A stretch of 38,556 nt of DNA from a marine gamma proteobacterium HTCC2080 (GTDB lineage Bacteria > Pseudomonadota > Gammaproteobacteria > Pseudomonadales > Halieaceae). The notes beneath the pieces were generated by a model that saw only the letters and a list, made by a program, of their open reading frames with translations, was not told where the DNA came from and ran no database searches. Positions 360-30,992 of the stretch are shown here, one piece after another. The stretch spans positions 1-38,556 of the forward strand of contig AAVV01000019.1 in the NCBI GenBank assembly GCA_000169115.1, written 5' to 3'. The first letter of the stretch is position 1. Each line of letters begins with the position of its first letter. A program made the position numbers and the translations under genes.

Positions 360-543
360 GTCACAGACTCTTACCACAGCGCCGCAACCCTCGCCCTACA
401 ACACCGCTAGCCCCAGAGCACTAAGACCGCCGATAACGCGCTTGTGACCCGTCGAAGCCCTGTTTACCATGATCAAAAGCAATCACTGCCCTGAACGGGG
501 CTTAATCGCACCGACCGTATCAATGGGTCGGTTAGGAGCCACC

Positions 544-1335
544 ATGATTCCAAGATTTAAAGCAGACCAGGAGCAGCATAAGTGGCTTGATGCCCTACTA
601 GAGGTCGGCGCTATTATTATCGAGGAAGTGGCGCCCCCCGGCAGCATTGAAACCTTTAATCGTGATCTACAACCTGAATACGAACGCGTGGGTGCAGGTT
701 TTCAAAATGATTTTAATGGCTACCGAACGCGCCGGGTTGGCGGTATCGCCGAGCATTCAGAAGAATTTCAAACGCTGTTTACTCATCCTGATGTTTTGGC
801 TCTAGCGAATGGGGTTCTGGGCCCTCGCTGCGAAAACATTCGTGTTGGCAGCACGACGGCTATTGAAATTTTACCCGGTGAAGATGCCCAGATTCTCCAC
901 GCCGATGACACCATTTATCCAAAAGAATACCTCCCTTTCGAGGTCCAGATTTCTGTGCTTTGGGCGCTTGATGACTTCACTGAAGAAAATGGTGCAACCC
1001 GGGTCATTCCCGGATCACATCTCAGTGGCCCGCATCCTGATGATGCCGAGCAGACGAGCTATCCTGCAGAAATGCCCCGGGGATCGATGGTTGTTTATCT
1101 GGGATCGACACTTCACGGCGGTGGTGCAAATCGCAGCGATAAGCCTCGAAGGGCACTGGTCAATACTTATGCCTTAGGCTGGCTGCGACAAGAAGAAAAT
1201 CAGTACCTAACCCTGCCCAGCGACGCTGTGGCGCAACAATCCGATGACGTTAGAAGACTGCTAGGCTTTCAAGTCCACGGCGCAAATCTTGGCGTCTGGC
1301 CGCAAGACCCAGACGGTAAGTGGTTTGAGTCCTAA
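544..1335 (+). CDS. Phytanoyl-CoA dioxygenase (PhyH) family Fe(II)/2-oxoglutarate oxygenase
   Basis: The protein has 263 residues. It is a cytosolic non-haem iron oxygenase that should hydroxylate an organic substrate using O2 and 2-oxoglutarate. The iron triad is visible as His119-x-Asp121 (LHADD) and His191 (STLHGGG), with a candidate 2-oxoglutarate-binding Arg near 202. Other PhyH hallmarks are the NGATRVIPGSH segment and the following PRGSMVVYLGS strand. The ATG at 544 is preferred because AGGAG at 534-538 lies 5 nt before it. An in-frame ATG at 469 would add 25 residues without such a site. The substrate is unknown. The gene sits between an MFS carrier and a membrane protein that begins inside or just after it. 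Confidence 0.85.
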   Translation: MIPRFKADQEQHKWLDALLEVGAIIIEEVAPPGSIETFNRDLQPEYERVGAGFQNDFNGYRTRRVGGIAEHSEEFQTLFTHPDVLALANGVLGPRCENIRVGSTTAIEILPGEDAQILHADDTIYPKEYLPFEVQISVLWALDDFTEENGATRVIPGSHLSGPHPDDAEQTSYPAEMPRGSMVVYLGSTLHGGGANRSDKPRRALVNTYALGWLRQEENQYLTLPSDAVAQQSDDVRRLLGFQVHGANLGVWPQDPDGKWFES

Positions 1336-2218
1336 CCCCTTGGTGGAATCCTCATCCCCTACACACCCATCCTCTGGCGGCCCGTTAAACTGGCAGTCGC
1401 GGTATCAGCAATACATAAAATGGCCTATTTATAGCCTGCTGTTTTTAAACTTCCTCCTGTACGTGCTCGAAGACTCTCGGACTCTGTCACGACAAGGCTA
1501 CGAATCGATCTGGGACATCACCTCAGCCTATGCCAACTCACTGGATGTGGCGGCCTGGTTTGGTTTATTGCTGGTATTTGAGATCGAGACATATTGGCAA
1601 CACATATATGCGATCCGTCGGGTGCGTTGGCCCTTGAATCTGATGCGCTTGGCGTGCTTTGGTGTACTGGCGCATACTTTGGTGGTTTATACCGGCGAAT
1701 TCCTCAATGTTCTTGAACCCACAAAACTAGCGTTAGCAGAGGCATTTTGTGGCCAAGACAACGTTACGCTTTACGAGCTACACAATCAGGTCTACACGAC
1801 CTTAGCCCCCCAAGCCTGCACTGACCGTCTAGCCACCGGAGAATTGACATTTTTATTGAACGCCACCACCGTAATGTCCGATCAGGGTTGGCGTATTGCA
1901 CTTAACCAGGCACTGGTCTCACTGATTGAGTGCGCTTCGTGGCTTGCAGCAGGTGCAGCCTTTGCAACTTCAGCTTTTTTAAAACGCCGGCAGACGTATA
2001 CCGGCCGGCTCGCAGCTTTGGTGCGTCATACGCCCCATGTCAGCTACTGCCTGATTGTTGGCTGTGCACTAAGCTGGGGCTGGTATGGCAAATATCTTTA
2101 CACCTACGACAGCCTACTCTGGCTAGGTGGCTTTGCCATGATTGAAGCTAACCTATCAACTTGGCGGCAGCGTATTCAGCAGCTTTGGGGTGGGCACGGC
2201 TTTCAGCCGAAAAGCTGA
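1325..2218 (+). CDS. Uncharacterised multi-pass membrane protein
   Basis: I do not recognise the family. About 290-309 residues are predicted, depending on the start. The frame opens at a TTG at 1289, and further TTG/GTG codons lie at 1325, 1340 and 1343. None has a strong ribosome site, so the start is uncertain and the gene overlaps or abuts the dioxygenase upstream. Hydrophobic segments follow a short polar N-terminus: one near YSLLFLNFLLYVL, one near VAAWFGLLLVFEIE, one near LACFGVLAHTLVVY, one near ASWLAAGAAFATSAF and one near YCLIVGCALSWGW. This suggests five or so membrane helices. A loop with two cysteines (FCGQD and QACTD) could be periplasmic. It is probably co-transcribed with the PhyH gene. 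It ends 14 bp from the facing Rieske gene. Confidence 0.6.
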   Translation: MSPNPLVESSSPTHPSSGGPLNWQSRYQQYIKWPIYSLLFLNFLLYVLEDSRTLSRQGYESIWDITSAYANSLDVAAWFGLLLVFEIETYWQHIYAIRRVRWPLNLMRLACFGVLAHTLVVYTGEFLNVLEPTKLALAEAFCGQDNVTLYELHNQVYTTLAPQACTDRLATGELTFLLNATTVMSDQGWRIALNQALVSLIECASWLAAGAAFATSAFLKRRQTYTGRLAALVRHTPHVSYCLIVGCALSWGWYGKYLYTYDSLLWLGGFAMIEANLSTWRQRIQQLWGGHGFQPKS

Positions 2219-2232
2219 CCGTAAGGAAGGCT

Positions 2233-3489
2233 CTAAACGACCTCAGACAGCGTGTGCAAATACCAGTGAATAAACTGCTGCAGGGTTTCTTCGAACTCGG
2301 AATGATAAGGGCCAGGCTCGAAAAAGCGGGAATTAACGCCCAGACTATTACGCGTAATGATGTATTCATCTTCCAGCGTCGTGTGGTGCCACAGCCAGGT
2401 AAGCTTCTCAAGATCATAGTCTTTACCCTCAACCGCATCACCGCGGACAAACCAAACGAGCTCCATATCAGACTCGGTCAGTGAGCGCGGTAAAAACCGG
2501 TAGAGCACGCAGTGATCAGGATAATTCAGCATAAAGCTGAGGGGGCCCATCTGAAAGTCGCCGGCCCCGCCGTCGTAATCCTGAAACTGCCCCATGAGTG
2601 GCGCTACGGGCTGGCCATCTTGACTACCGGTTACAAAGCCCTCGTACAAACCGTAACGCATGGTATGGGCGCACGTACCAAAGTTATCCGCGTCGAGATA
2701 AATCTGGGTATGGGTTTGGGAGATACCATTGATACCTGTCTTGGCATCGGAATTTTCCAGCATTTTGGCCACAACCGGCGCCGACTTCTCTTCTAGGTCT
2801 TTTAAGGTGTGCAGCCGCGCGTATGCCCTATGTGAGGTTGCACAGTGGTAGCACTCTAAATAGTTTTCAATGGCGAGCTTCCAGTTGGCCTGAACACGAT
2901 AAGTCTGTCGATGAGCCACCTTGGCATTGGCTAAATCATAGGCGCCTAGGGGAATACGCATTTTATCGAGGGAGGCCACCAGGTCAGCAGCATTAGGGTC
3001 GCAATTGATAAAAACCATGCCCATGTACTCGACACAGCGAACCGCCTTCAAACCCAACTGGGTTTTATCGAAGTCCGGCATGATGTGGGTCTCGCGTGCG
3101 GCTTTAAGCGAACCATCTAAGTCGTAGACCCAACCGTGATAGGGGCAGACAAACGTTTTTCGGTTGCCTGTTGTCGCCTCGCAAACCCGCGAACCACGGT
3201 GGCGGCAAATGTTATGCATCGCCTTGATCGAACCATCTGTGGTTCGCACGACGATAATGGCATCCTCGCCAATCTCTAGCAGCTGGTAGTCACCGACATT
3301 GGGGATCTCGCTGGTGTGCAATGCGTAAATCCAGCTTTTAAAGACCAAGTGCTCTAGCTCGAGCTCATGAACAAGGTGCGAGCGATAAAAATAGGGGTCA
3401 ATGGCGTAGTCGGGGCGTAATTGCTCAGCAGCGAGCTTCTCACGCAGCTGATCGGTTGAGTCATCGACATGTGTGGCAATAACAGACAT
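2233..3489 (-). CDS. Rieske-type oxygenase alpha subunit, quaternary-ammonium-oxygenase-like
   Basis: A 418-residue oxygenase component. The Rieske [2Fe-2S] ligands are Cys95-x-His97 and Cys115-x2-His118. The catalytic domain has ENYLECYHC...H, giving Glu212 as the residue bridging to the iron centre and His215 and His220 as ligands, with an acidic third ligand likely in LEDEY near 373-375. A Glu in place of the usual Asp at the bridging position is, from memory, a feature of the GbcA/CntA-type oxygenases that demethylate or cleave betaines and carnitine. A methylated or quaternary amine is therefore the best guess for the substrate. It is the last gene of the operon. No ferredoxin reductase is nearby, so electrons must come from elsewhere. 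The ATG at 3489 has only a weak ribosome site. Family is sure; substrate is inference. Confidence 0.88.
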   Translation of the reverse strand: MSVIATHVDDSTDQLREKLAAEQLRPDYAIDPYFYRSHLVHELELEHLVFKSWIYALHTSEIPNVGDYQLLEIGEDAIIVVRTTDGSIKAMHNICRHRGSRVCEATTGNRKTFVCPYHGWVYDLDGSLKAARETHIMPDFDKTQLGLKAVRCVEYMGMVFINCDPNAADLVASLDKMRIPLGAYDLANAKVAHRQTYRVQANWKLAIENYLECYHCATSHRAYARLHTLKDLEEKSAPVVAKMLENSDAKTGINGISQTHTQIYLDADNFGTCAHTMRYGLYEGFVTGSQDGQPVAPLMGQFQDYDGGAGDFQMGPLSFMLNYPDHCVLYRFLPRSLTESDMELVWFVRGDAVEGKDYDLEKLTWLWHHTTLEDEYIITRNSLGVNSRFFEPGPYHSEFEETLQQFIHWYLHTLSEVV

Positions 3490-3504
3490 AACAGTTACCC
3501 AGGC

Positions 3505-3518
3505 ACTCCTGTAGGAGT
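3505..3518. other. Inverted repeat between the GcvT-like and Rieske genes
   Basis: ACTCCT and AGGAGT face each other with a 2-nt centre, in the 35-nt gap between the two operon genes. As RNA it could form a short hairpin just before the Rieske gene. It may damp transcription or shape mRNA processing. No T-run follows, so it is not a convincing terminator. Confidence 0.3.
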
Positions 3519-3524
3519 CGCTAT

Positions 3525-4709
3525 TTAAAAAGGAGGGGCCGGTGTTTGCCGCCTTCGCTTGGGGTTAAACAAGGGGCCGTCAATAACGCGACACGGTGCG
3601 AGCATCCGCGTCCAATGAAGCTCCCGCTGGTAATAGATTTCGGCGACCAACTCATCCCCAACCGCTCCGTGGGGCATTTCAAGCTGAGCGTAGGCAATGT
3701 TGGACTTCACCGTAGGACACCAGGCAGCGGAGGTAACGGTGCCCACCACTTTATCGCCCTTCATAATGAACGAGTGCTCCGCTGGCTTGTTACCCTCGAT
3801 ATCGAGCATGGCAAAGCGGTACCGGGAGCCTTTGGCTTTTTCGGCAAGCAGTGCCGAGCGGCCATTAAACAGGGGTTTAGAGAAATCGACCAACCACTCT
3901 AGACCCAACTCAAAGGGGCTTCGAGTGCGGCCATTGCGCACAACTTCTTCAGCCGGAACAAAGTCGACGTGAGCCTGAATAAAACCCGCTTCAATGCGAG
4001 CCATATCCAGAGCATAAGAGCCAATCGGTTTAATGAGATATTCACGGCCGTGCTCAAACAACTGATCCCACAAGGCCTCTGCCTGAGCAGGCGCTACCCA
4101 AACCTCATAGCCCAAATCTCCGGTGAATCCGGTACGGCTCACCATCATTGGTGCACCTTCAAAGGTAAAGTGCGCAATACCAAAGGGCTTCAACTGATCC
4201 AAGCCTGTACAACCTAGCAACGTAAGAATCGTGCAAGAGGTTGGGCCCTGCACGGCCAGCCCTGCCAGGTCTTCGCTTTCGTTAGTAATGGTGACGTCAA
4301 AACCGAGCGTGCACCAAGCTAACCAGTCATCAGCGCGCTGGTAGGAACACAACCTGAAATCCTGCTCACCCAGGCGAAAGATGGTGCCATCGTCCATGAC
4401 CTGACCCGCATCATTGCACCACACCGCATAGCCCACACGATTGATCCCGAGCTTGCTGACGTTACGCGTTACCATGCGATTGAGATATGCCTCTGCATCG
4501 GGACCGGTAATGCGGTATTTATTCATGGGTGATAAATCGAATACGCCCGTAGTACTGCGAATCGCGAAGTATTCAAGTTCGACATCAAAGTAGGCATTGG
4601 GGGTTGTGTAACCCATCCAATTGCCCCAGTCATTCATGTCGCACATCGCCTCAACCCGTGAGTGAAACGGGGTAGGCAGGAGCATAATGTCTCGGCTTGA
4701 GGTAATCAT
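3525..4709 (-). CDS. GcvT-fold aminomethyltransferase-like protein
   Basis: A 394-residue protein with the full folate-binding GcvT layout: N-terminal domain from about residue 20, and a C-terminal barrel from about 280. Landmarks are KYRITGPDAEAYL, GQVMDDGTIFRL with the conserved Asp, LAVQGP, and RTGFTGDLGYEVW with the folate-region Glu. The family moves one-carbon units between a methylated donor and tetrahydrofolate (GcvT, DmdA, LigM/DesA, and the C-terminal half of sarcosine or dimethylglycine dehydrogenases). No other glycine-cleavage gene is nearby, so it is not part of that system. Its ATG overlaps the stop of the upstream flavoprotein by 4 bp (ATGA), and GGAG lies 7 nt before it, so translation is coupled. 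In this context it likely captures C1 units from an N- or O-methyl group. Confidence 0.85.
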   Translation of the reverse strand: MITSSRDIMLLPTPFHSRVEAMCDMNDWGNWMGYTTPNAYFDVELEYFAIRSTTGVFDLSPMNKYRITGPDAEAYLNRMVTRNVSKLGINRVGYAVWCNDAGQVMDDGTIFRLGEQDFRLCSYQRADDWLAWCTLGFDVTITNESEDLAGLAVQGPTSCTILTLLGCTGLDQLKPFGIAHFTFEGAPMMVSRTGFTGDLGYEVWVAPAQAEALWDQLFEHGREYLIKPIGSYALDMARIEAGFIQAHVDFVPAEEVVRNGRTRSPFELGLEWLVDFSKPLFNGRSALLAEKAKGSRYRFAMLDIEGNKPAEHSFIMKGDKVVGTVTSAAWCPTVKSNIAYAQLEMPHGAVGDELVAEIYYQRELHWTRMLAPCRVIDGPLFNPKRRRQTPAPPF

Positions 4710-6265
4710 GCAAAGGCTCCTTGCTTAATCATTTCCTTAGCGGCGTTACGACCCGGCAAGCCCATAAGGCTGCCCCCCGGATGAGCGCCAGCACCGCATA
4801 AAAACAAACCATCAATCGTAGTCTTGTATTGGGTAGAACCCGGGAATGGGCGCATCATGAGTGCCTGGTCAATCGACAACTCACCGTGATGCCAATTGCC
4901 TCCGGTCATACCGTAGGCCGCCTCAAAATCGGGTGGTACGAGTAATTCGGAAGCGACAATCTGCCCTTTGATACCCGGCGCATAAGCTTCGAGTTGCTCA
5001 ATAAGGTTATCGAGCACCGCCTGGCGATGCGCTTCCCATCCGCCTTTGGGTGCGTAGGGCAGGTAGTGCACCAGCGCTGTTAAAACATGCTGACCACTCG
5101 GTGCAAGACTCGAGTCTTCGATACTGGGAATACTAATATCAAAGACCTGCTTGGGACCGCACTCCGCGTACTTCATAGGGTTGAAGGCGCTCTCGATAGC
5201 ATCCATGGTCGGTGCAATAACTAACCGTTGAGACAGGGCTGCGGTATCAAGCCCCGAAAACGCCGGCAAATCTGACAACGCAAGGTGGAGCTTCGCTGTG
5301 CCGCTTCGCGTCCGGTATTGGGCAGCGCGACGGGCTGTTCCCGTCTCAAGGCGCTGGTAGCCCAGCAGATCACGGAAAGTCGTGGTCGGATCAGCACTTG
5401 AGATCACCGCCTTGGCCCGCAGCGTTGTGCCATCAGACAAAGTGACCCCGCAAACACGATCGCCCTCTTTCACGATTGCCTGCACGGTGCTGCCTAAGCG
5501 AACAGTCGCGCCGTGGGTCTCAGCAACCTTTTGCAGCGCATCGCCAAGGGCACCCATACCGCCCATGACCTGGACAACACCCTTGGATTGCAGTTGGTTG
5601 CCCAGCGCGCGATGCAGATAGGTATAAACGGTGTTGGGCGAACGCGGCCCCATGTTGGTGCCAGTAATCGCGTCTAAAGCCAAGGCAGCCTTGAGGCCCT
5701 CATGATCGAAATTTTCATTCATCACATCATAGATATTGATCAACACAATGCGCATGAGGTCCTGCATGTTGGTCTTGCCCATGAGCTTGAGACCCAGACC
5801 CAGCTTCATCAAGGTCAGACGGTCAGGCCAGTTGGCGTCCACCAGCTTGGGCGCGCGGCCGCGATACAGTTTAAGCATCAGCTTGCCAAAAACATCCATC
5901 TGCTTACGAAAGGCCTGAAAAGCGGCCTGGTCTTTGGTCCCAATACCTGCACCACGCAGAAAGTCGCCGTCGATACTCAAATGATCACCATCGGCTTGCA
6001 GTGCCACCGTGCGCTTGCGAGCACCCACCTTTAGGCCCGCCGCTTCAAGTCCCAGATCCCGGACAATGGCATCGTCCAGCTGGTACAGCCACTGGGCGCA
6101 ATCGGACATTCGGAATCCCGGCGCTACTTCCCGAGTGCTCGCGCAGCCACCAGCTTGATCCCGGGCGTCTAAAATTAGAACCCGCTGACCCGCCTTGGCC
6201 AGATAAGACCCACAAATCAATCCGTTGTGGCCGGCACCTATGATGATCGCATCATAATCAGTCAT
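4706..6265 (-). CDS. PYROXD2/CrtI-type FAD-dependent oxidoreductase (second of pair)
   Basis: A 519-residue flavoprotein of the phytoene-desaturase-like superfamily. The N-terminal FAD site is IIIGAGHNG, with the acidic ribose-binding residue in LILDARDQAGG. The C-terminal FAD motif is LCGAGAHPGGSLMGLPG. Length and motifs fit the PYROXD2-like branch rather than true carotenoid desaturases, and no carotenoid biosynthesis gene is near. The frame could begin at 6328, but the ATG at 6265 has GGAGGTT at 6278-6272, 6 nt before it. That start gives an 8-bp overlap with the upstream paralogue. The reaction is unknown; oxidation of a C-N or C-C bond is plausible. Confidence 0.85.
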   Translation of the reverse strand: MTDYDAIIIGAGHNGLICGSYLAKAGQRVLILDARDQAGGCASTREVAPGFRMSDCAQWLYQLDDAIVRDLGLEAAGLKVGARKRTVALQADGDHLSIDGDFLRGAGIGTKDQAAFQAFRKQMDVFGKLMLKLYRGRAPKLVDANWPDRLTLMKLGLGLKLMGKTNMQDLMRIVLINIYDVMNENFDHEGLKAALALDAITGTNMGPRSPNTVYTYLHRALGNQLQSKGVVQVMGGMGALGDALQKVAETHGATVRLGSTVQAIVKEGDRVCGVTLSDGTTLRAKAVISSADPTTTFRDLLGYQRLETGTARRAAQYRTRSGTAKLHLALSDLPAFSGLDTAALSQRLVIAPTMDAIESAFNPMKYAECGPKQVFDISIPSIEDSSLAPSGQHVLTALVHYLPYAPKGGWEAHRQAVLDNLIEQLEAYAPGIKGQIVASELLVPPDFEAAYGMTGGNWHHGELSIDQALMMRPFPGSTQYKTTIDGLFLCGAGAHPGGSLMGLPGRNAAKEMIKQGAFA

Positions 6266-7874
6266 CAGCATAACCTCCGGGCACGGTGTTGGGTTGCTTG
6301 AGATCCATAAGAATTTCCCGCGCCGCATTGGCTCCGGGCGCGGCCATCACGCCGCCTCCCGGGTGGGTTCCAGAACTGCACATGTACATACCTTTAATAG
6401 GGCCGCGGTATTGGGCATAACCCGGAAAGGGTCGGTTGAACAACAATTGATCGAAGGTCAGCTCACCCATGAAAATGTTGCCTTCAGTAAGTCCTACCTC
6501 CGCTTCAATTTCCCGCGGCGTTCGGGTTTCGCAGTGAAGAATAAGGTCTTTGAAATTGGGGCTGTACTTTGCAATTTGGTCGATCACCGACTTTTCGAAA
6601 CCGTCTTTATCTTCGTCCGTCCAATCACGTCCTTCGACCTTTGGTGGCGCATATTGCACAAACACCGACATCATGTGCTTGCCGGGGGGCGCCATCGTGG
6701 GATCCGTTAGCGACGGAATCATCATGTCCAAGTAAGGATCCTTAGACCATGTTCCATTTTTCCAATCGTCATAAGCACGTTCTTGACGCTCGAGTGAGTC
6801 GCTGAAATGTAGGTCCCCCGCCATAAGCTTGCTGCGAGGGTCGAGGCCGTCAAAGGTTGGCAAGCCATCGAGGGCAATATTCAGCTTGCCCGAAGAGCCT
6901 CGAATCTTGAAGTTTTGGGCCTTCTGAATCACGTCATCAGGCAGATCTTTGGGATTAATAATATCGAGGAAGGTGCGTTTCGGATCGAGGTTAGAGACCA
7001 CGATATCGGCGTGGTACTCGGTGCCGTCCTTCAGAGCGACGCCTTTAGCCTCACCACCTCTGACGATGATTTCATCGACGTTGGCATCACAAATAATCTC
7101 GCCCCCGTAAGAGAGGAACGCCTTAGACAGTGCATCGGCGACCGCCCCCATTCCGCCCCGAGCAAAACCCCAGGCTCCGACGTTGCCATCAACATCGCCC
7201 ATATAGTGGTGCAACAGTACATAGGCTGTGCCCGGAGAATAAACCCCCAGTGCCGTGCCAATAATTCCGCTCCCGGCAAGGTGCGCCTTTAACACGTCTG
7301 TCTCAAAATATTCGTTCAGGTAGTCACCAACACTTGCCGTCCAAAATTTAATGGTATCGAGCAAGCCTTCTTCACCCATGGAAGTAAACGACTTGGCAAA
7401 TTCGATCAGGTCGCGTAAATCCCGCAGCTTCAGTGAAGTGGGATCAGGCGCAGTCTTCAACAAGTAAGGACGAATGAGTTTGGTTTGGCGACTCGTATCG
7501 GCCACGTAGCGGTCGTAGGCGTTGGCGTCGCGTTTCGAGTGGCGTGCAATCTCGCGATAGTGACGATCATGATCACTATAGCTGCCCAGGTGATCGCCGT
7601 TTTGCATGAAGGTAGCGCCGCCTCCAAAGGGAACGACTTGAAGTCCGTGGCGCGGCAGCTCGAGGTCGCGGGTGATCTCGGGGCGCAGCAAGCTGGCAAC
7701 ATAAGAGCAGTTGGAGTAGTACCAACCTTTATGCAGCTCACGGCTGACTGTGGCACCACCGATGTAGGGATTACGCTCTAACACAGCAACCTTGAGACCC
7801 GCCTTAGCGAGGTAGGCGCCATTGGTGAGGCCATTGTGGCCGGCACCAATAACAATAGCGTCATACTTATTCAA
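6258..7874 (-). CDS. PYROXD2/CrtI-type FAD-dependent oxidoreductase (first of pair)
   Basis: A 538-residue paralogue of the next gene, with the FAD site IVIGAGHNG, a second signature near VLERNPYIGG, and the C-terminal motif MCSSGTHPGGGVMAAPG. It begins at TTG (7874), supported by GGAG at 7884-7881 with a 6-nt spacer; no in-frame ATG fits better. It is the first gene of the four-gene operon and lies opposite the BetI-like regulator, with the palindrome at 7940-7953 in the shared control region. The two flavoproteins probably either form a heteromer or act at successive steps. Their substrate cannot be read from sequence. The common database label phytoene desaturase would be misleading here. 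Confidence 0.85.
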   Translation of the reverse strand: MNKYDAIVIGAGHNGLTNGAYLAKAGLKVAVLERNPYIGGATVSRELHKGWYYSNCSYVASLLRPEITRDLELPRHGLQVVPFGGGATFMQNGDHLGSYSDHDRHYREIARHSKRDANAYDRYVADTSRQTKLIRPYLLKTAPDPTSLKLRDLRDLIEFAKSFTSMGEEGLLDTIKFWTASVGDYLNEYFETDVLKAHLAGSGIIGTALGVYSPGTAYVLLHHYMGDVDGNVGAWGFARGGMGAVADALSKAFLSYGGEIICDANVDEIIVRGGEAKGVALKDGTEYHADIVVSNLDPKRTFLDIINPKDLPDDVIQKAQNFKIRGSSGKLNIALDGLPTFDGLDPRSKLMAGDLHFSDSLERQERAYDDWKNGTWSKDPYLDMMIPSLTDPTMAPPGKHMMSVFVQYAPPKVEGRDWTDEDKDGFEKSVIDQIAKYSPNFKDLILHCETRTPREIEAEVGLTEGNIFMGELTFDQLLFNRPFPGYAQYRGPIKGMYMCSSGTHPGGGVMAAPGANAAREILMDLKQPNTVPGGYADD

Positions 7875-7939
7875 GGCATTCTCCGTCTTACAATCAAGTA
7901 AGTGGAGTCTGCCATGCTCGTCTTTAGCCGTCCACTATG

Positions 7940-7953
7940 AATGAACGTTCATT
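7940..7953. promoter_or_regulatory. Perfect 14-bp palindrome, likely operator of the BetI-like repressor
   Basis: AATGAACGTTCATT reads the same on both strands. It lies 66 bp before the TTG of the flavoprotein operon and 66 bp before the GTG of the TetR-type gene, so it sits exactly midway in the divergent region. TetR-family regulators bind such compact dyads, and BetI sites as I recall them share the TGAACGT core. One repressor dimer here could control both directions. The site is seen directly; its binding partner is inferred. Confidence 0.6.
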
Positions 7954-8019
7954 TATAGATTGCCATTTATTACTATATTGATAGAGTAAGCGAGAACCCG
8001 GCAGCGATTATTTTTTTCA

Positions 8020-8685
8020 GTGACAGTAACCTCACCAACAACAGCATCTCAAAAGGCCGAAAAAAAACCTCGGCAAATGCGCTCGCGCTCGGAGCGACGG
8101 TTGCAATTAATCGACGCGACTATTCGCTGCATTGCCCAACATGGACTGTCTGCCACCACTATGCAGCTGGTCACCCGTGAGGCTGGACTAAGCCTGGGTA
8201 TCGCGAACCTGCATTTTCAAAGCAAAGAAAACCTGCTTGCTGAGACGCTGCGTCATGTCACTCGGGAGTACAACGATGGCTTACTGGCCATTCTGACTCC
8301 AGAAAACAGCACTTCTGACGGCTGCCTTGCCGATACGCTTGAACGGCTACTAGACTTTCAGTTGAGCCATGGCGTCACCCAGCGGCAAAAGATGGCGGTG
8401 TGGTTTGCTTATTATGGGGAGGCTAGTGCTCGTCCGATCTATCAAAAAATCTGCTCCAGCAGCGATCGCTTGTCGATGCAAAAGGTGGAGGAGCTGTTTG
8501 CTGCCATCGTTAACGAAGGCGAATATAAAGATCGCGACCCCCAACAGCTGGCGACAGGCTACCTGGCGTTGATCGATGGTTTGTGGCTCAGCCTGCTGGT
8601 CGCACCGCGAGTATTAACCAAAGCCAGGGGCAAAGATGTGGCTAGGGCTTATTTACAGCAGGCCTTTCCTAAACACCTCAATTAG
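8020..8685 (+). CDS. TetR-family regulator, BetI-like
   Basis: A 221-residue DNA-binding regulator. The N-terminal helix-turn-helix spans roughly residues 25-70 (RRLQLIDAT, then TMQLVTREAGLSLGIANLHFQSKENLL) and is close in pattern to BetI, the choline-responsive repressor of betaine synthesis. The C-terminal ligand domain also resembles BetI (VWFAYYGEASARPIY and LALIDGLWLSLL). It starts at GTG 8020; the ATG 20 codons later is an alternative, and neither has a strong ribosome site. It is divergent from the flavoprotein-GcvT-Rieske operon and most likely represses it and itself through the palindrome between them. The ligand is probably the pathway substrate, perhaps a quaternary amine. The last codons lie in a 12-bp tandem duplication. 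Confidence 0.85.
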   Translation: MTVTSPTTASQKAEKKPRQMRSRSERRLQLIDATIRCIAQHGLSATTMQLVTREAGLSLGIANLHFQSKENLLAETLRHVTREYNDGLLAILTPENSTSDGCLADTLERLLDFQLSHGVTQRQKMAVWFAYYGEASARPIYQKICSSSDRLSMQKVEELFAAIVNEGEYKDRDPQQLATGYLALIDGLWLSLLVAPRVLTKARGKDVARAYLQQAFPKHLN

Positions 8686-8796: not shown

Positions 8797-9365
8797 TTAA
8801 CGACTGATGTTATTGGGCGGAACGTAATCAAAAATAAAATTAACGCGACCTTCACTACCCTTGTTCATTACGCTGTGCTGCTTCTGATTGTTAATTTCAT
8901 AGACATTACCAATTTGCATACGCTGCGGGCGTCCATCAATCATAAAGCGCACCCGTGGGTTGCTGGATATCGGAATATGAATACGGTGACCGTGATGGAA
9001 GGACGGATGCTTATCGTTGTGGGGTTTAATAACGCCACCCGCCTGTAACCTTGCGGCCATGGCGCGAATAATCGTGCCGCCTGGCGGATAGTGATCCTCT
9101 AAAATTTGTGCATCAGAGGCACCGCCTCTTCGGCGAGTAAATCCCAACCCACTTCTTTGGATACTTCAATATTAGGCCAGCCATGCCCATCGGTGAATAC
9201 CAGCACCACCGACTGGGTGTGCGCATGCACTTCGTACTCGAGCTGACGAAACTCGTTGCCTGCCCAAGCTTCCTCGGGTAGAGCCAATATTTTGTCGCGC
9301 AGAGGCTCAATGGTATAAGACCCTAAGTCTTTTATGGGTACGCCAATATCCATGGTCACCAACAA
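8797..9365 (-). pseudogene. Aspartyl/asparaginyl beta-hydroxylase-like gene, frameshifted
   Basis: Two overlapping frames together encode one protein of ~190 residues of the aspartyl/asparaginyl beta-hydroxylase family, a 2-oxoglutarate Fe(II) oxygenase. The first frame runs from about 9365/9353 to a stop at 9099-9101 and ends VPLMHKF. The second continues with ILEDHYPPGG, the metal/cosubstrate segment GGVIKPHNDKHPSF, RIHIP and a later His in HSVMN, ending at 8797. One extra base in the A/T run at 9101-9107 would join them as PLMHKILEDHYPP. It is either a recent single-base deletion or a sequencing error. A GTG at 9359 (AGGA 7 nt upstream) or the ATG at 9353 may be the start. All catalytic residues are intact in the second part, so decay, if real, is recent. 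Confidence 0.8.
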
Positions 9366-12161: not shown

Positions 12162-14159
12162 ATGGTATCGCAACACCCGAAACGTATCTTTGACCGAGCA
12201 GTTGAGCTCGTCAAAGGCGGTGCTCGGCAAGAAGCCGAAGCGTTGTGCCGCCAAGCCCTGGAGCAAAATCCGGGTGACATCAATTTTGTTGCCCTCTTGG
12301 GCTGGATTCTCGCTGAGAGTAATAAGCTAGAGGAAGCCGAAGAGTTGTTAACCCGTGCGGTGCGCACGACACCGGGCAATGCCAAAGCTCAGGAAGACTT
12401 GGGTACCGTACTTTTGAATCTCAACCGCCCTGAGGAAGCCCTAAGTCATCTCGAACGGGCAAGAGAATTGCGTCCACCTAACGCCCCTTTATTGAGCAAA
12501 CTGGGTGGCGCCTACCAAAAGCTTGGCCGCCTTCAAGAGGCTGATGCAGTTCTCAAGCAGGCCGCGTCAATGTCCCCGGTGCAAGCCAAGTTAGAAGAGG
12601 CAACCCGTTTATTCATTGCCGGTAAATTTAGGGAATCGGAAAAGCTCACCCAAGCCCTAGTCCGTGAGAATCCTGATAACGTCAACGCGGCATTATTGCT
12701 GGCAAGAATCGCCATCATGGCGAAATGTTTTGAGGATGCACGGGTTATTCTTGAGCGCATTACCCAGACCAAACCTCGCTTTGTAGCGGCCTGGCACGAC
12801 CTCGCTACCGTGCTTAAAGAGTTACATCATTACGAAGAGGCTGTTTCCATACTGGAAAACGCTGTCAGTATCGAGCCCAATAACGCCCTCACCCACTACT
12901 ACCACGGTGCGGCTTTGGCCATGGCGGCCAGACCTCAAGACGCTGTCGATGCCTACCGCACTGCTGTAGCACTCGATGCCAAAATACCAGGGGCGCACAT
13001 CGGGCTCGGCCACGTTCTTAAGACGGTGGGGGACCAAGAAGGCGGCATCGAAGCCTACCGCCAAGCCATTGAGCTCAGGCCCAATTTTGGCGAAACCTAT
13101 TACAGCCTCTCCAATCTGAAGACCTTTCGCTTCCAAAGCAGCGAAATTGAAGATATGCAAACGCGCCTAGCGAACGACAAGCTACCCGTTGACTGCCGGG
13201 TTCACTTTGCGTTCTCAATCGGCAAGGCATTTGAAGACGAAAAGCAGTACGACAACGCCTTTGAGCACTACGCCCTGGCCAATCGACTTCACCGAGATAG
13301 CATTGCCTACGATCCGGTTCAGACCGAGGTCGCCCACCGACGCATGTGCGAAATTTTTGATGATGAGTTTTTTGCTCGCCATCGCGCGGGTGGCTATGGC
13401 TGCGAAAAATCAGACCCAATCTTTATCGTAGGCCTACCCCGCTCTGGGTCAACGTTATTAGAGCAAATTCTCGCCAGTCACTCCCAGGTGGATGGCACCA
13501 GTGAGCTTCCTGATATTTCAATGATCGCCCAAGGTCTCACGGAACCTAAAACGGGTCGAGTTTTCCCAAGCTGTATGACAGATATAGCACCAGAGGAATT
13601 AGCCCGGCTGGGGCAGCAGTACCTGACGCAGATCCAGCGGCACCGGGGAAACAGCCCCTTCTTCACTGATAAGATGCCCAATAACTTTGCTTACACCGGC
13701 TTTATTAAGGCGATTCTTCCCAACGCTAAAATTATTGATGCCCGACGCCATCCCATGGATAGCTGCTTCGGTTCTTTCAAGCAGCATTTTGCGAAGGGGC
13801 AAACCTTCACCTACGACCTTTTTGAGCTGGGTGAGTTTTACCTTGAGTACGACCTAATGATGGCGCATTGGAACAAGGTATTACCGGGGCAGGTATTGCG
13901 AGTTCAGTATGAGAATGTAGTAGAAAATCTCGAAGACGAGGTAAAACGCATTCTGACCTTTTGCGAATTGCCCTTCGAGGAGGGCTGCGTGAATTTTCAT
14001 GAAACCGAGCGTGCGGTTCGAACGGCGAGTTCCGAACAAGTGCGCCAACCCATTTACAAAGGGGCACTCGCCACCTGGAAGCGTTTTGGAACCCACCTCG
14101 ATGAGCTGCGGGAAATACTGAGCCCCGTGCTTCCTGAAGAAGACAGATTGAACAGCTGA
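12162..14159 (+). CDS. TPR-repeat sulfotransferase fusion protein
   Basis: A 665-residue protein in two parts. Residues ~5-320 are consecutive tetratricopeptide repeats (LGWILAESNKLEEAEELL, LGTVLLNLNRPEEALSHL, LGGAYQKLGRLQEADAVL and more). Residues ~415-650 are a sulfotransferase domain: the PAPS 5'-phosphosulfate loop GLPRSGSTLLEQIL at 424-437 and the 3'-phosphate region ARRHPMDSCFGS at 527-538. The enzyme should transfer sulfate from PAPS to a protein, glycan or small molecule bound through the TPR part. Such fusions are common in marine Proteobacteria but their acceptors are mostly unknown. AGGAG lies 11 nt before the ATG. The stop overlaps the next start by one base (TGATG). Confidence 0.88.
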   Translation: MVSQHPKRIFDRAVELVKGGARQEAEALCRQALEQNPGDINFVALLGWILAESNKLEEAEELLTRAVRTTPGNAKAQEDLGTVLLNLNRPEEALSHLERARELRPPNAPLLSKLGGAYQKLGRLQEADAVLKQAASMSPVQAKLEEATRLFIAGKFRESEKLTQALVRENPDNVNAALLLARIAIMAKCFEDARVILERITQTKPRFVAAWHDLATVLKELHHYEEAVSILENAVSIEPNNALTHYYHGAALAMAARPQDAVDAYRTAVALDAKIPGAHIGLGHVLKTVGDQEGGIEAYRQAIELRPNFGETYYSLSNLKTFRFQSSEIEDMQTRLANDKLPVDCRVHFAFSIGKAFEDEKQYDNAFEHYALANRLHRDSIAYDPVQTEVAHRRMCEIFDDEFFARHRAGGYGCEKSDPIFIVGLPRSGSTLLEQILASHSQVDGTSELPDISMIAQGLTEPKTGRVFPSCMTDIAPEELARLGQQYLTQIQRHRGNSPFFTDKMPNNFAYTGFIKAILPNAKIIDARRHPMDSCFGSFKQHFAKGQTFTYDLFELGEFYLEYDLMMAHWNKVLPGQVLRVQYENVVENLEDEVKRILTFCELPFEEGCVNFHETERAVRTASSEQVRQPIYKGALATWKRFGTHLDELREILSPVLPEEDRLNS

Positions 14160-15097
14160 TGCCGAAATTACCCAAGTTTATTGCGACATCGGTGGTCAGG
14201 GGTTCTGAAAAGGGCCAAAGTCATGGTGGTGTTTTCCTCATCGACTTTGATAACCAGCAGGTAGACCAGAAGATAGACTGGAATACCGGTGACATTGACT
14301 TCTCGGGTCGGGGCTGGGACCGCGGGCTTCGCGGCATCGAGTTTACCGACGATGAGCTCTGGATTGCGGCCAGCGACGAACTGTTTTGCTACACCCCTGA
14401 CTTTCAGCTGGTTGGTTCATACCGAAACCCCTACTTACGCCACTGCCATGAGATTAGCCGGCGCGACCATTTGCTTTTTCTCACCTCTACCGGCTTCGAT
14501 TCACTTCTAGCCTTCAATCTGAATACACGGGAATTCGTCTGGGGCGTTTATTTCTCAAAAGACGGCCGTCAATGGGTGGCACAAGCCTTTGACCCGAGGG
14601 TACAGGGAGGGCCTGCCTTCACAAATTCGTACCACATCAATATGGTCAAAGTTAACCAAGATGGTATCTATTTAAGCGGGCTCAACACCCAGGCACTGCT
14701 GGCGCTATCGGCAGACCTAGCAGTTACCGAGTTCTGCAACCTTCCCAAGGGTTGTCATAACGCTCAGCCTTTTGAAGACGGTGTGCTGTTTAACGACACC
14801 GGGGCAGACGTGGTGCGCTATGTCTCCCCCAACGCACAGGGCTGTGCCGTACCGGTACCCGGCTTTGATCCTGAAACACTCGAGTATCGCGGCGTCGATG
14901 ACAGCCGAATTGCTCGCCAAGGCTTCGGCCGGGGCCTGTGCGTCGTTAATGATCAATTGGTTGCAGCGGGCTCTAGTCCCTCTACCGTTGCTATTGTTGA
15001 TGTCATAGCAGGCAAGCGCCTGACAGCCGTCAATCTAACTCTTGATATCCGCAACGCTATCCATGGTCTGGAATGCTGGCCCCATCGTTGGTCGTGA
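14159..15097 (+). CDS. Uncharacterised protein, possibly beta-propeller (DUF4915/TIGR03032-like)
   Basis: A 312-residue soluble protein without signal peptide. It is rich in short strand-turn units (GVFLIDFD, LWIAASDELFCYTPDF, LLFLTSTGFDSLLAFN, IYLSGLN, GVLFNDTG, LVAAGSSPSTVAIVD), as in a beta-propeller. It has conserved-looking His-containing motifs (RHCHEI, SYHIN, KGCHNAQP, IHGLECWP). The pattern recalls the TIGR03032/DUF4915 group, an assignment from memory and not certain. Its ATG shares one base with the TGA of the sulfotransferase gene, so the two are translationally coupled and made together. It may bind, modify or present the sulfotransferase substrate. A strong terminator follows 38 bp after the stop. 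Confidence 0.65.
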   Translation: MPKLPKFIATSVVRGSEKGQSHGGVFLIDFDNQQVDQKIDWNTGDIDFSGRGWDRGLRGIEFTDDELWIAASDELFCYTPDFQLVGSYRNPYLRHCHEISRRDHLLFLTSTGFDSLLAFNLNTREFVWGVYFSKDGRQWVAQAFDPRVQGGPAFTNSYHINMVKVNQDGIYLSGLNTQALLALSADLAVTEFCNLPKGCHNAQPFEDGVLFNDTGADVVRYVSPNAQGCAVPVPGFDPETLEYRGVDDSRIARQGFGRGLCVVNDQLVAAGSSPSTVAIVDVIAGKRLTAVNLTLDIRNAIHGLECWPHRWS

Positions 15098-15128
15098 AAC
15101 GTCGCTGTTCTGAATAATCGCAGGTCAT

Positions 15129-15157
15129 AAAAAAAGGGCGCCAAAGGCGCCCTTTTT
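15129..15157. terminator. Bidirectional rho-independent terminator
   Basis: A 7-bp GC-only stem, GGGCGCC (15136-15142) and GGCGCCC (15146-15152), with an AAA loop, is flanked by seven A on the left and five T on the right. It can end transcripts from both the sulfotransferase pair (+) and the TonB-dependent receptor (-), which converge here. Confidence 0.92.
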
Positions 15158-15174
15158 CTGTCAGTCGTTGCAGC

Positions 15175-17583
15175 CTAGAAGGCTTTTCTGACCGTTAGTG
15201 AGTAGTTCCTGGGCCGAATAACCGAAGAACTGTTGCGCCCCCAGACGGTATCAAAATCACTGGTATCTTGATAAGTAATACCGCGCTCATCGGTCAGGTT
15301 ACTAAAGCGCAGCTGGGCCTGCCAATCACCACTCTCGAAGGACAAAATGGCATCGGTAATGTCGTAATCGCCCTGGACACGCTGGGGTGACGTGAAGCCA
15401 TCGGTCAGCTGGTTCAGCGACTCACCCACATAGCTGTGTTGCAAGCGAACACCTACTTCACCGCCAAACATATTGATGCCTGAGTAGTCGGCATAGAGGT
15501 AATAGCTGGTATCGGCAAACAACGGCAGGCTTGATTGAGCTTGCAAGCCCGAGGGTACTTTGCCGCCTTGAGCACGAGGTTCATCATAGAACTCCTGGCC
15601 ATTGACATAAGCATCTTGAATATCAGTCAGGTTTACCCCAATTTCCAGGTTCTCAGTGACCAGTGCCTTGAGCTCAAAATCGAAGCCCTTAACCGTAGCG
15701 TTGCCCACGTTACCCACCACAATCTGGAAGGGAATATTGCCGTATAGCGGATCGCCATTTTCATCTTGCACACTGAAGGTGCCCAGCGCGTTACTGGGGT
15801 CCACCACCTCAATCTGCATGTCATTCCACTTCATGGTGTAGTAGACCGCGTTAAACACGACGCGACCATCGAAGAACGATGACTTCAGACCAAACTCGGT
15901 ATTTTCAAGAATATCTGACTGGTAATCGACAGGAAGTGTTGGGCCGCCTCGGTCCAGACCGCGACCCCGGTTAGTACCACCCACCCGGAAGCCCTCGGAA
16001 TAAACGCCGTAGACCATCACGTCTTCGAGCACCTGTAACTCAAGACCATACTTTGGAATGAAACCATCATCCGAGGCGGTTCGGTTGGGCAGCTGCTGAT
16101 CCACTCGGGCGTCAGGGCGCTCCACCGTGTAGCTCAACTCACGATCCACTTCGTACCATCGGCCTCCAAGTATGGCCGTTAATCGATCCTCAATAAGAAC
16201 AACATCCATCTCACCAAAAACGGCTTTATCAGTTCTGTCGGTCGCTTGGTAAGAGTTCCACCAAGCATCGGTGGGGGCAATACCCGGGTAGTAGTAGCTC
16301 CAGGTCTCGAATGCCGTGGAGTTACGATAGTCATCTACGTAGGTATAAAAGTCCCAAAACTCTTCAGACTCCTGCCAAAAACCGCCCAGTGTCCAGTTAA
16401 TTCGATCAGTACTACCCGACAGGCGTATTTCCTGAGTCAGGCTTTCATTGTTTTGGTCGTTAACGAGGTAGCCCGTGGGGTCCAAACCAAAATCGTAAGT
16501 TGCATAGCCGTAATAAAGGCCGAAGGCATAGTGAAAATAAGCCGCGTAAGACTGAGTGTCGTGAACATATAAGGTATCTCGATCGTAATACGACGTCGCT
16601 GACACCAACTGAGCAAAACCTAGGTCGCCTTCTATCACCAGACTGGTTTGCAACCACTCATCGGTGCGTGTTTCTTGGACAAATTTGATGGTCTCAAGGT
16701 CACCGACGCTGGGGTCGTAATCATTGAAGCCATCAGACTCGAGATCCTGATAGTTTGCCGTCGCAGTGACGCTCCAGTTATCGTTAACCAGCCAGCGAAT
16801 CGACGCGCGAGCCCCGAGCCAGTTCACCTCATTAATATCTTCACCGACCATACCGCTGTTGTCTTTCTGGCCACCCAAGCCTGAACCAAAGACATCATCG
16901 ACAACGGTGCTGCCCAAAACGTTATCAATAAATCCGGCATCCCGGGCACTGAAACCCGCCAGCCTGATCGCGACAGAATCGCTCAAGGGTATGTTAACGG
17001 CACCATCTAATTCATAGCCGGTTCCGCCATCTGAAGTGCTGGAAACACCGGCACCGATATTCGCACTAAAGGCATCGGGATCGGGCTTGTTGGTGATCAC
17101 TCGAATAGCACCACTTTGTGATGATGCGCCATAGAGTGTGGACTGTGGGCCTGCTAATGCCTCAATACGGGCAAGATCGACGGGGTAAATATCGGGCGCC
17201 ATCGAGGTCATCGACATGGGCTGTTCGTCGAGGTAAATAGCAGCGGTAGGATCAACTAAGAAGCCGCCCCCGTCACTCACACCACGGAAGACGATGGTGT
17301 TCTGGCCGGGGGAAGTGGTCTGAATGTTTAAGCCCGCGACTTGTCGGGAAAAGTCTTCAAGGGTGGTAATACCCTGCTTCTGAATGTCTTCGCCGGAGAG
17401 TGACTGCACCATCATTGGGATGTCTTGGGAAGATTCTGCCCGTTGACGTGCGGTTACAACAACTTCCTCTAATTCAGCACTAAAGGTCATACCCGGGGCG
17501 GTTGCGCCGATCGCGGCGGCAACGCCCGCGGCGATGGCTGAAGGGTGAAAACGACTGTCTTTCTTTGATAAGTCAGATGTCAT
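15175..17583 (-). CDS. TonB-dependent outer-membrane receptor
   Basis: An 802-residue outer-membrane transporter energised by TonB. It has an N-terminal export segment (~10-36), a TonB-box-like stretch EEVVVTAR at 39-46, a plug domain (~50-170, including IVFRGVSDGGG and PQSTLYGASSQSGAIRVITNKP), and a long beta-barrel rich in aromatic residues ending in ...LTVRKAF with terminal Phe. The sequence type is the broad Sphingomonas/OM60-like receptor group whose substrates (often hydrophobic organics, glycans or complexed compounds) are rarely known. AAGGGA lies before the ATG. It is transcribed alone; the 446-bp leader region holds two CGTTG/CAACG dyads that could be operator sites. The downstream end is closed by the terminator at 15129-15157. 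Confidence 0.92.
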   Translation of the reverse strand: MTSDLSKKDSRFHPSAIAAGVAAAIGATAPGMTFSAELEEVVVTARQRAESSQDIPMMVQSLSGEDIQKQGITTLEDFSRQVAGLNIQTTSPGQNTIVFRGVSDGGGFLVDPTAAIYLDEQPMSMTSMAPDIYPVDLARIEALAGPQSTLYGASSQSGAIRVITNKPDPDAFSANIGAGVSSTSDGGTGYELDGAVNIPLSDSVAIRLAGFSARDAGFIDNVLGSTVVDDVFGSGLGGQKDNSGMVGEDINEVNWLGARASIRWLVNDNWSVTATANYQDLESDGFNDYDPSVGDLETIKFVQETRTDEWLQTSLVIEGDLGFAQLVSATSYYDRDTLYVHDTQSYAAYFHYAFGLYYGYATYDFGLDPTGYLVNDQNNESLTQEIRLSGSTDRINWTLGGFWQESEEFWDFYTYVDDYRNSTAFETWSYYYPGIAPTDAWWNSYQATDRTDKAVFGEMDVVLIEDRLTAILGGRWYEVDRELSYTVERPDARVDQQLPNRTASDDGFIPKYGLELQVLEDVMVYGVYSEGFRVGGTNRGRGLDRGGPTLPVDYQSDILENTEFGLKSSFFDGRVVFNAVYYTMKWNDMQIEVVDPSNALGTFSVQDENGDPLYGNIPFQIVVGNVGNATVKGFDFELKALVTENLEIGVNLTDIQDAYVNGQEFYDEPRAQGGKVPSGLQAQSSLPLFADTSYYLYADYSGINMFGGEVGVRLQHSYVGESLNQLTDGFTSPQRVQGDYDITDAILSFESGDWQAQLRFSNLTDERGITYQDTSDFDTVWGRNSSSVIRPRNYSLTVRKAF

Positions 17584-24182: not shown

Positions 24183-24374
24183 AAAGTATCCCGTACTTAG
24201 CTGGGTGCCCTGGACCCGAGAGGATCCAAAACACGTTGATTTTTATTGTCTATACCTAGTGCCTAAAAGTGGTATTTTTTACTTATCTGCAGTTCAAAAT
24301 TCGATCGACAAAACGACCTGACGCAGATCACTATCCGCCAAATAAAAATCAAGATGCAGGCGGAGTACCTTACG

Positions 24375-25523: not shown

Positions 25524-25645
25524 GGAAGGCCGAATTCCCGTCGCGGCGCAAAAATGGGTGGCTTTCCTGGCATGAGGTCAGGGCTTTACGCCAGCGCATC
25601 TGGTACCTTCACCTGAAGACATTTTTTCAGGAAGAGGACTCCGTT

Positions 25646-28692: not shown

Positions 28693-28701
28693 TGCTAACG
28701 C

Positions 28702-30820: not shown

Positions 30821-30885
30821 GCACCACTCCAGTGCGAAAGCTTCATCGCGGTGCAATCTCCACAATCCTGTTTTTCTTCTCTCAT
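30790..30885 (-). CDS. Possible 31-residue leader ORF overlapping the gpgP start
   Basis: ATG at 30885 has a full AAGGAG (30900-30895) 9 nt upstream. The 31-codon frame ends at 30790, 31 bp past the gpgP ATG in another frame. The product is small and polar, with a Cys-x2-Cys pair (DCGDC). Ribosomes reading it would cross the gpgP start region, so it could tune gpgP translation. No family is recognised and chance occurrence is possible. Confidence 0.3.
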   Translation of the reverse strand: MREEKQDCGDCTAMKLSHWSGACWAVGERFR

Positions 30886-30943
30886 TCGGGGGCACTCCTT
30901 GCCGTGAATGTATCTTCTTACGCTTATTTTTCCGTGAAAAACC

Positions 30944-30955
30944 CTCAACGTTGAG
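30944..30955. promoter_or_regulatory. Perfect 12-bp palindrome in the gpg leader
   Basis: CTCAACGTTGAG is a perfect dyad about 30-40 nt downstream of the start site expected from the sigma-54 promoter. Its position would suit a repressor that blocks elongation or initiation. Its CAACGTTG core also occurs upstream of the TonB receptor (17734-17741). Confidence 0.4.
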
Positions 30956-30992
30956 CAGACAACAGACCGCCAACGAGGTCTTTCGGTAAACT

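What the first reader, a model, noticed from the sequence alone, without database searches (positions are those of the whole stretch)
2233..8685. Uncharacterised demethylation-like module: Rieske oxygenase + GcvT-fold protein + two PYROXD2-type flavoproteins + BetI-like repressor
Four genes overlap or nearly touch, two with coupled starts, so they act together. The Rieske enzyme has the quaternary-amine type iron signature, the GcvT-like protein can take up a one-carbon unit, and the regulator looks like BetI, which senses choline. Together they suggest oxidative removal of N-methyl groups with C1 capture by tetrahydrofolate. The role of two CrtI/PYROXD2-type flavoproteins in such a pathway is not described as far as I know, and no reductase for the Rieske enzyme is present.
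Basis: partly seen in the sequence, partly recalled or inferred. Interest (0 to 1): 0.75.

Follow-up and report, generated by a model that had tools for sequence, protein, structure and literature searches.

The report
Two-flavoprotein plus folate-protein demethylation operon
A bacterium carries a compact, widely conserved gene set that looks built to strip methyl groups from nitrogen compounds and hand the released carbon to the vitamin folate, using flavoproteins related to carotenoid enzymes in an unexpected role.

Summary
A tight four-gene operon (two CrtI-superfamily flavoproteins, a GcvT-fold protein, a Rieske oxygenase) runs divergently from a TetR regulator. One start needs correcting: flavoprotein B probably begins at 6265, not 6328.

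The Rieske protein groups with stachydrine demethylase (Stc2) rather than with the three aromatic oxygenases sampled. It is not the core, however. The constant unit is a triad: flavoprotein A, flavoprotein B, GcvT. It is complete in 66 of 80 named loci, and the other 14 are cut by contig ends. The Rieske gene is an optional partner (20 of those 66).

The GcvT protein keeps the residues aligned with Asp96 and Glu195 of T. maritima GcvT. Neighbours that recur in some lineages are polyamine-type ABC transporters, class III aminotransferases, a gamma-glutamylputrescine-synthetase-like ligase, agmatinase and PurU.

Best reading: an oxidative N-demethylase of dimethylglycine-dehydrogenase logic, rebuilt from CrtI-type flavoproteins. 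The Rieske enzyme would open quaternary N-methyl amines. The triad would oxidise the remaining N-methyl groups and pass the carbon to tetrahydrofolate.

The substrate is unknown; methylated lysine- or polyamine-type cations fit best. No activity is shown. My paper searches listed no description of the triad.

The parts
2233..3489 (-). Rieske non-haem iron oxygenase alpha subunit, Stc2/GbcA-type (418 aa); likely ligands C95, H97, C115, H118; H215, H220, D374; likely bridging E212 (roles recalled from the family)
   Evidence: D374 read from the alignment to 3vca
3525..4709 (-). GcvT-fold protein (394 aa), closest solved relative the C-terminal part of TMAO demethylase; D107 and E202 aligned with T. 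maritima GcvT D96 and E195, invariant in 20 of 20 aligned
4706..6265 (-). Flavoprotein B, CrtI/amine-oxidase superfamily (519 aa from the likely start 6265; frame open to ATG 6328)
6258..7874 (-). Flavoprotein A, CrtI/amine-oxidase superfamily (538 aa, TTG start); 73% mean column identity over 32 sequences
7940..7953 (.). Palindrome AATGAACGTTCATT, possible TetR operator; palindromes of the form AATG...CATT in 13 of 24 divergent TetR/flavoprotein A spacers read, the window's included
   Evidence: not significant in the window alone
8020..8685 (+). TetR-family regulator with BetI-type C-terminal domain (221 aa), divergent
   Evidence: tblastn hit to it in 41 of 66 complete triad loci
1289..2218 (+). 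Possible accessory: uncharacterised membrane protein (no Pfam hit, no PDB fold match at E 0.001) whose relatives in several genomes lie beside triads

Best explanation
The operon is a catabolic N-demethylation module. The Rieske enzyme hydroxylates an N-methyl group of a quaternary (trimethyl-) ammonium substrate, and the hydroxymethyl collapses to formaldehyde plus the tertiary amine (inferred from the Stc2/GbcA/CntA kinship). Flavoproteins A and B, probably working as a pair, oxidise the remaining N-methyl groups to the iminium (inferred from the amine-oxidase/CrtI superfamily). The GcvT-fold protein binds tetrahydrofolate and takes the one-carbon unit as 5,10-methylene-THF (inferred from the conserved folate-site carboxylates and the kinship to the TMAO-demethylase domain). 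This is the logic of dimethylglycine dehydrogenase and heterotetrameric sarcosine oxidase with a different flavoprotein. The TetR protein represses the operon until substrate is present (inferred). The likeliest substrate class is a medium-sized cationic N-methyl amine of the methylated lysine or methylated polyamine type, not glycine betaine. Shown: gene order, superfamily membership, residue conservation, position of the Rieske in a tree, co-conservation. Inferred: every catalytic step, the complex, the regulation and the substrate.
For: Triad A+B+GcvT complete in 66 of 80 named loci; the other 14 have under 2.3 kb before GcvT, and 13 of those still show B. In a 293-genome order sample 28 of 28 flavoprotein A hits of 689 bits or more have GcvT within 6 kb. 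Order A-B-GcvT in 62 and B-A-GcvT in 4 of 66. GcvT D107/E202 invariant in 20 of 20; closest solved relative is the C-terminal part of TMAO demethylase (4e-53). Rieske in a clade with Stc2, ECYHC motif. Rieske and triad co-occur in 14 genomes (17 triad, 16 Rieske, of 293; Fisher 3e-19, not corrected for kinship). C1 partners: in G180 a Rieske orthologue adjoins PurU and a molybdoenzyme related to formate-dehydrogenase-like ones; PurU in 5 of 100 loci, two of which (L046, L071) are the same place. Amine partners: ABC transporter clusters in 33 of 66 complete loci, class III aminotransferase 18, glutamine-synthetase-like ligase closest to gamma-glutamylputrescine synthetase 10, agmatinase 4; a trimethylamine-methyltransferase-family gene beside a 44%-identical Rieske in Leisingera. 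Fold of A: carotenoid desaturases, then NicA2, putrescine oxidase, MAO among the best 50. Outside bacteria, PYROXD2 variants associate with N6-methyl- and N6,N6-dimethyllysine (PMC9730628, PMC7878905, passages).
Against: No activity, complex or substrate is shown. 46 of 66 complete triad loci have no cluster-4 Rieske in the DNA held, and 33 of 66 no transporter cluster; PurU is in 2 and agmatinase in 4 of 66. The Rieske occurs without the triad in G180 and G261. The window's own genome shows no PurU by one search (best hit partial, 35%). No Rieske reductase is next to the operon. The nearest solved folds of A by score are carotenoid desaturases, not amine oxidases. PYROXD2 kinship was not tested by sequence; one study links PYROXD2 to hydroxyhexadecanoylcarnitine instead (PMC9320943), the rare-variant signal in PMC7878905 vanished after conditioning on a common variant, and in PMC13352909 the PYROXD2 locus lost significance when adjusted for diabetes in one cohort. 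Neighbour sets vary between lineages, so the substrate may vary.
Confidence: 0.6

Rival explanations
1. The operon degrades glycine betaine / dimethylglycine / sarcosine, a lineage-specific replacement of the GbcAB-DgcAB-Sox route, under a choline-sensing BetI-type regulator.
For: GbcA is the best NCBIfam model of the Rieske (292 bits) and TetR_C_6 is BetI-type.
Against: Both miss their curated cut-offs (292 vs 670; 102.7 vs 201.3 bits). A different Rieske with ECYHC exists elsewhere in the genome (own_L001). Neighbours in relatives include polyamine-type transporter, aminotransferases, agmatinase and a gamma-glutamylation-type ligase, which glycine betaine does not need.
Confidence: 0.13
2. 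The GcvT protein performs redox-neutral demethylation (DMSP or O-methyl type, like DmdA/LigM) and the flavoproteins act on the carbon skeleton, for example desaturating it.
For: DmdA, LigM and DesA models also hit; acyl-CoA dehydrogenase (21 of 66) and NDP-forming CoA ligase (18 of 66) recur next to triads; A is nearest to desaturases by fold.
Against: DmdA model 127 vs cut-off 410 bits, while another protein of this window (24354-25523) scores 343.5 for DmdA; the closest solved relative is the TMAO-demethylase domain.
Confidence: 0.15
3. The flavoproteins are CrtI/CrtO-type isoprenoid enzymes and their adjacency to GcvT and Rieske reflects lipid or pigment modification.
For: CrtO and crtI_fam are the best NCBIfam models; 4dgk is the best solved relative of both by sequence and 4rep of A by fold.
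Against: Far below the cut-offs (291 and 240 vs 1000; 118 and 133 vs 238 bits); I recognised no isoprenoid gene among the cluster representatives that I read, which are a part of all neighbours.
Confidence: 0.06

Closest known systems
Dimethylglycine dehydrogenase/oxidase and heterotetrameric sarcosine oxidase
   Same: FAD amine oxidation coupled to a GcvT-fold domain that gives 5,10-methylene-THF (mechanism recalled); their GcvT parts align with the window protein (1e-20 to 4e-27)
   Different: There the flavin domain is DAO-type (recalled); here it is a pair of separate CrtI-superfamily proteins, 34% identical to each other, and GcvT is a free protein; no GcvT-flavoprotein fusion in 100 loci plus the window
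Trimethylamine N-oxide demethylase (Tdm)
   Same: Closest solved relative of the GcvT protein (9q59, 4e-53) and best NCBIfam hit (272 bits)
   Different: Tdm is one long chain (763-position model, matched only at 388-760); the triad GcvTs form their own clade (0.979); cut-off 1100 not met
Stachydrine demethylase Stc2 and glycine betaine monooxygenase GbcA
   Same: Rieske clade with Stc2, ECYHC motif, full-length alignment
   Different: GbcA cut-off missed; no adjacent hybrid-cluster NAD(P)-dependent oxidoreductase, which two plasmid Stc2-like genes have. That 3vca is Stc2 is recalled
Human PYROXD2
   Different: Sequence kinship not tested here; the human protein is at the mitochondrial inner membrane (PMC13352909, passage), and no GcvT partner is known to me

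Membership tests
Stc2/GbcA/CntA quaternary-amine Rieske oxygenases | Grouping with a known member apart from aromatic-ring oxygenases | tested here: met
   FastTree: clade of window + Stc2 + 3n0q, support 0.966. The tree was rooted by me on BenA, an HcaE-like protein and an RW1 dioxygenase, the only named aromatic ones sampled; CntA entered with its first half only
Stc2/GbcA/CntA quaternary-amine Rieske oxygenases | Glu (not Asp) bridging residue in E-C-Y-H | tested here: met
   31 of 31 cluster-4 ORFs (30 distinct) including the window's; also in Stc2 and CntA; Asp in BenA and the HcaE-like protein. A Glu at this place also occurs in other Rieske types of the set. That it bridges is recalled
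GbcA (NCBIfam NF058607) | Curated score cut-off 670 bits | tested here: not met
   292 bits
BetI choline-sensing repressor | Curated cut-off (TIGR03384 201.3; NF001978 118 bits) | tested here: not met
   102.7 and 99.8 bits
Glycine cleavage T-protein | Curated cut-off (TIGR00528 235.85; NF001567 300) | tested here: not met
   155.4 and 211 bits
GcvT-fold THF-dependent C1 acceptors | Folate-site carboxylates aligned with T. maritima GcvT D96 and E195 | tested here: met
   D107 and E202, invariant in 20 of 20; the role of these residues is recalled
TMAO demethylase | Long two-part chain and cut-off 1100 bits | tested here: not met
   394 aa, 271.8 bits
DmdA DMSP demethylase | Cut-off 410 bits | tested here: not met
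   127.2 bits
CrtI/CrtO carotenoid enzymes | Cut-offs TIGR02734 238.1, NF045689 1000 | tested here: not met
   A 117.9 and 290.8, B 133.3 and 239.5 bits
CrtI/amine-oxidase flavoprotein superfamily | GxGxxG FAD motif and fold | tested here: met
   G10, G12, G15 invariant in A (32) and B (31); AF2 model of A (pLDDT 83.5) matches 4rep (TM 0.77 by query, 0.84 by target), then other CrtI-like, NicA2, putrescine oxidase, MAO; B not modelled
PYROXD2 | Sequence kinship to human PYROXD2 | not testable with these tools
   no PYROXD2 model among the hits listed (best 25 shown) and no PYROXD2 chain among solved-structure hits listed
THF-coupled N-demethylase | Amine-dependent methylene-THF formation | not testable with these tools
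   needs purified proteins

The most novel reading that the evidence does not exclude
The triad is a new class of folate-coupled N-demethylase, in which a CrtI/PYROXD2-type flavoprotein pair replaces the DAO-type flavin domain, and it is the bacterial counterpart that explains human PYROXD2: it removes methyl groups from free methyl-lysine-type (or methyl-polyamine-type) cations, after a Rieske oxygenase opens the trimethylated form.
Probability: 0.27. Interest if true: 0.85.

Novelty: new variant of a known kind. Interest (0 to 1): 0.6.

Why it matters
Folate-coupled demethylation of dimethylglycine, sarcosine and TMAO feeds one-carbon units into metabolism (recalled). A second, differently built solution in Gamma- and Alphaproteobacteria, and a few Betaproteobacteria by record title, would open a new route for methylated nitrogen compounds. 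It would also give PYROXD2-type flavoproteins a testable reaction, amine N-methyl oxidation with the carbon passed to THF; in my listings human PYROXD2 is linked to methyllysine by association only. Named isolates hold it (HTCC2148, Kiloniella laminariae, Hoeflea, Shinella).

Tried and rejected
Homarine-degradation operon: considered from memory; searches listed no paper on it, and the gene set does not match what I recall. Glycine betaine route, DmdA-type chemistry and carotenoid enzymes: see rivals. Gene fusions as proof of a complex: no GcvT-flavoprotein fusion; the 981-aa ORF of L112 matches a flavoprotein only in its second half. Viral contigs: no relative by six peptide patterns of P0002. 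Window palindrome alone: not significant (85 of 2000 shuffles of the spacer hold an arm of 7 or more; 69 of 100 shuffles of the window hold a site with at most one mismatch); only its recurrence counts. Promoter/terminator scan: at or below chance. Window membrane protein 1289-2218: AF2 model (pLDDT 78.4) has no PDB match at E 0.001 or better. Papers: ten searches; of these 32, 60, 61, 95, 96 and 109 bore on such a module, PYROXD2 or candidate substrates, and none of the titles and abstract starts listed describes this triad; lists were cut at 8-20 rows. Read by passages only: PMC7878905, PMC13352909, PMC9730628, PMC9320943.

Full report
What is there. The window is the whole of contig C7 of its genome (38,556 nt). 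On the minus strand four genes run in one direction: flavoprotein A 7874-6258, flavoprotein B 6265-4706, GcvT-fold protein 4709-3525, Rieske oxygenase 3489-2233; a TetR gene 8020-8685 runs away from them. B's first ATG is at 6328, but GGAGG stands 8 nt before the ATG at 6265, where the protein also begins to resemble A's start; I take 6265. B and GcvT share ATGA, A and B overlap by 8 nt, GcvT and Rieske are 35 nt apart.

Families. Pfam and NCBIfam place each protein. The Rieske protein's best model is GbcA (292 bits, cut-off 670). The GcvT protein's best is TMAO demethylase (272, cut-off 1100), ahead of GcvT (211 and 155) and DmdA (127). A and B are best hit by CrtO (291 and 240, cut-off 1000). 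The regulator is hit by BetI models below their cut-offs. Each protein therefore belongs to a known superfamily and to none of the curated families that hit it.

The core is a triad. In 293 genomes of the order sample, 28 of 28 flavoprotein A hits of at least 689 bits have the GcvT gene within 6 kb; of 28 GcvT hits of at least 360 bits, 27 have A nearby, and at the one exception, in G113, GcvT lies 977 bases from the contig start. Of the eight A-like hits between 391 and 558 bits that I compared, six have no GcvT nearby, so more distant relatives of A do occur alone. The order is A-B-GcvT in 62 and B-A-GcvT in 4. By record titles hosts are Gamma- and Alphaproteobacteria with a few Betaproteobacteria, many named only to class or phylum. 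Plasmids of Shinella, Rhizobium, Parasedimentitalea and Fuscovulum carry the same three genes in a row in the four records I opened of seven with a match above 59% identity. A is the most conserved (73% mean column identity over 32 sequences), B less so (52% over 31). The window's genome has a second triad on contig C17, beside a glutamine-synthetase-like gene and a DAO-type oxidase.

The Rieske partner. It groups with Stc2 and 3n0q with support 0.966 in a tree that I rooted on BenA, an HcaE-like and an RW1 dioxygenase. All 31 cluster-4 Rieske ORFs (30 distinct) carry ECYHC, as Stc2 and CntA do; BenA has Asp. Cluster-4 Rieske genes lie in 20 of 66 complete triad loci. In the order sample 16 genomes have the Rieske and 17 the triad (counting G113), 14 both; 12 of 18 Rieske loci lie within 20 kb of a triad gene, for G113 judged by its GcvT on the same contig; G180 and G261 have the Rieske without the triad. 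In G180 the Rieske gene overlaps a PurU gene (348 bits, cut-off 286), which overlaps a molybdoenzyme gene; relatives of that enzyme in G261 and L061 hit formate dehydrogenase alpha below cut-off (235 and 238 vs 666 bits). That is the expected fate of demethylation carbon. In Leisingera caerulea a 44%-identical Rieske stands beside a trimethylamine-methyltransferase-family gene (354 bits, cut-off 525), an OYE-type flavoprotein, an agmatinase and a transporter.

Folate site. Aligned with T. maritima GcvT, D96 corresponds to D107 and E195 to E202; both are invariant in 20 of 20 triad GcvTs. The 12 triad GcvTs in a tree of 31 GcvT-fold sequences form one clade (0.979).

Neighbours (of 66 complete loci; flanks vary up to 10 kb; clusters are joined at 35% identity, so some members may be unrelated in function): TetR by tblastn 41, any ABC transporter cluster 33, acyl-CoA dehydrogenase 21, class III aminotransferase 18, NDP-forming CoA ligase 18, GntE/GSA-like aminotransferase 13, glutamine-synthetase-like ligase 10, DAO-type oxidase 8, aldehyde dehydrogenase 8 (named by eye), agmatinase 4, PurU 2. 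NCBIfam names are from one representative each: agmatinase, PurU and aminotransferase PRK07036 pass their cut-offs; the ligase (gamma-glutamylputrescine synthetase 215 vs 650) and the transporter's binding protein (PotF 329 vs 636) do not.

Regulation. The TetR/A spacer holds AATGAACGTTCATT. Of 24 such spacers read, the window's included, 13 hold a palindrome of the form AATG...CATT and 11 another one or none (my reading). This suggests, but does not show, the operator.

Mechanism. A and B keep the FAD motif; the model of A resembles carotenoid desaturases first and amine oxidases (NicA2, putrescine oxidase, MAO) next. Together with a folate-binding-type protein and a quaternary-amine-type Rieske enzyme, the simplest account is stepwise N-demethylation with C1 capture on THF. 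Another study names hydroxyhexadecanoylcarnitine (PMC9320943). These are associations, and kinship of A or B to PYROXD2 was not tested.

What stays open: the substrate, the electron acceptor of A/B, the reductase of the Rieske enzyme (best own-genome candidate 28% identical on contig C9), and why two flavoproteins are needed. The window's genome shows no PurU by the one search made, so its C1 unit would leave another way.

Noticed in passing
window 24354-25523 (+): A second GcvT-fold protein, closest to DMSP demethylase DmdA (343.5 bits, cut-off 410), followed by an S58-family peptidase gene 25487-26872.
   Followed up: partly
window 1289-2218 (+): Uncharacterised membrane protein family (no Pfam, no PDB fold match at E 0.001); relatives sit beside triads in G000 C17, G241, G280 and G068; own genome has three copies, two beside triads; other relatives lie elsewhere.
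   Followed up: partly
window 12162-17583: TPR-sulfotransferase gene, a 312-aa protein without Pfam hit and a TonB-dependent receptor; relatives recur beside triads in other loci (TPR-sulfotransferase 7, receptor 4, 312-aa 4 of 66).
   Followed up: partly
window 8797-9147 (-): Gene of 116 aa where most relatives beside other triads have 171-216 aa (looks like an aspartyl beta-hydroxylase, recalled): seems truncated or split here.
   Followed up: no
window 469-1335 (+): PhyH-type dioxygenase beside the membrane protein gene; one other locus (L066) has a relative.
   Followed up: no
window 26962-36100 (-): Apparent sugar cluster: alpha-amylase/sucrose-phosphorylase-like protein, phosphatase-like protein, GFO/IDH/MocA oxidoreductase, sodium:solute symporter.
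   Followed up: no
L155:6421-10725: Overlapping genes for Rieske, PurU and a formate-dehydrogenase-related molybdoenzyme in G180, without a triad in that genome: possible independent demethylation unit.
   Followed up: partly
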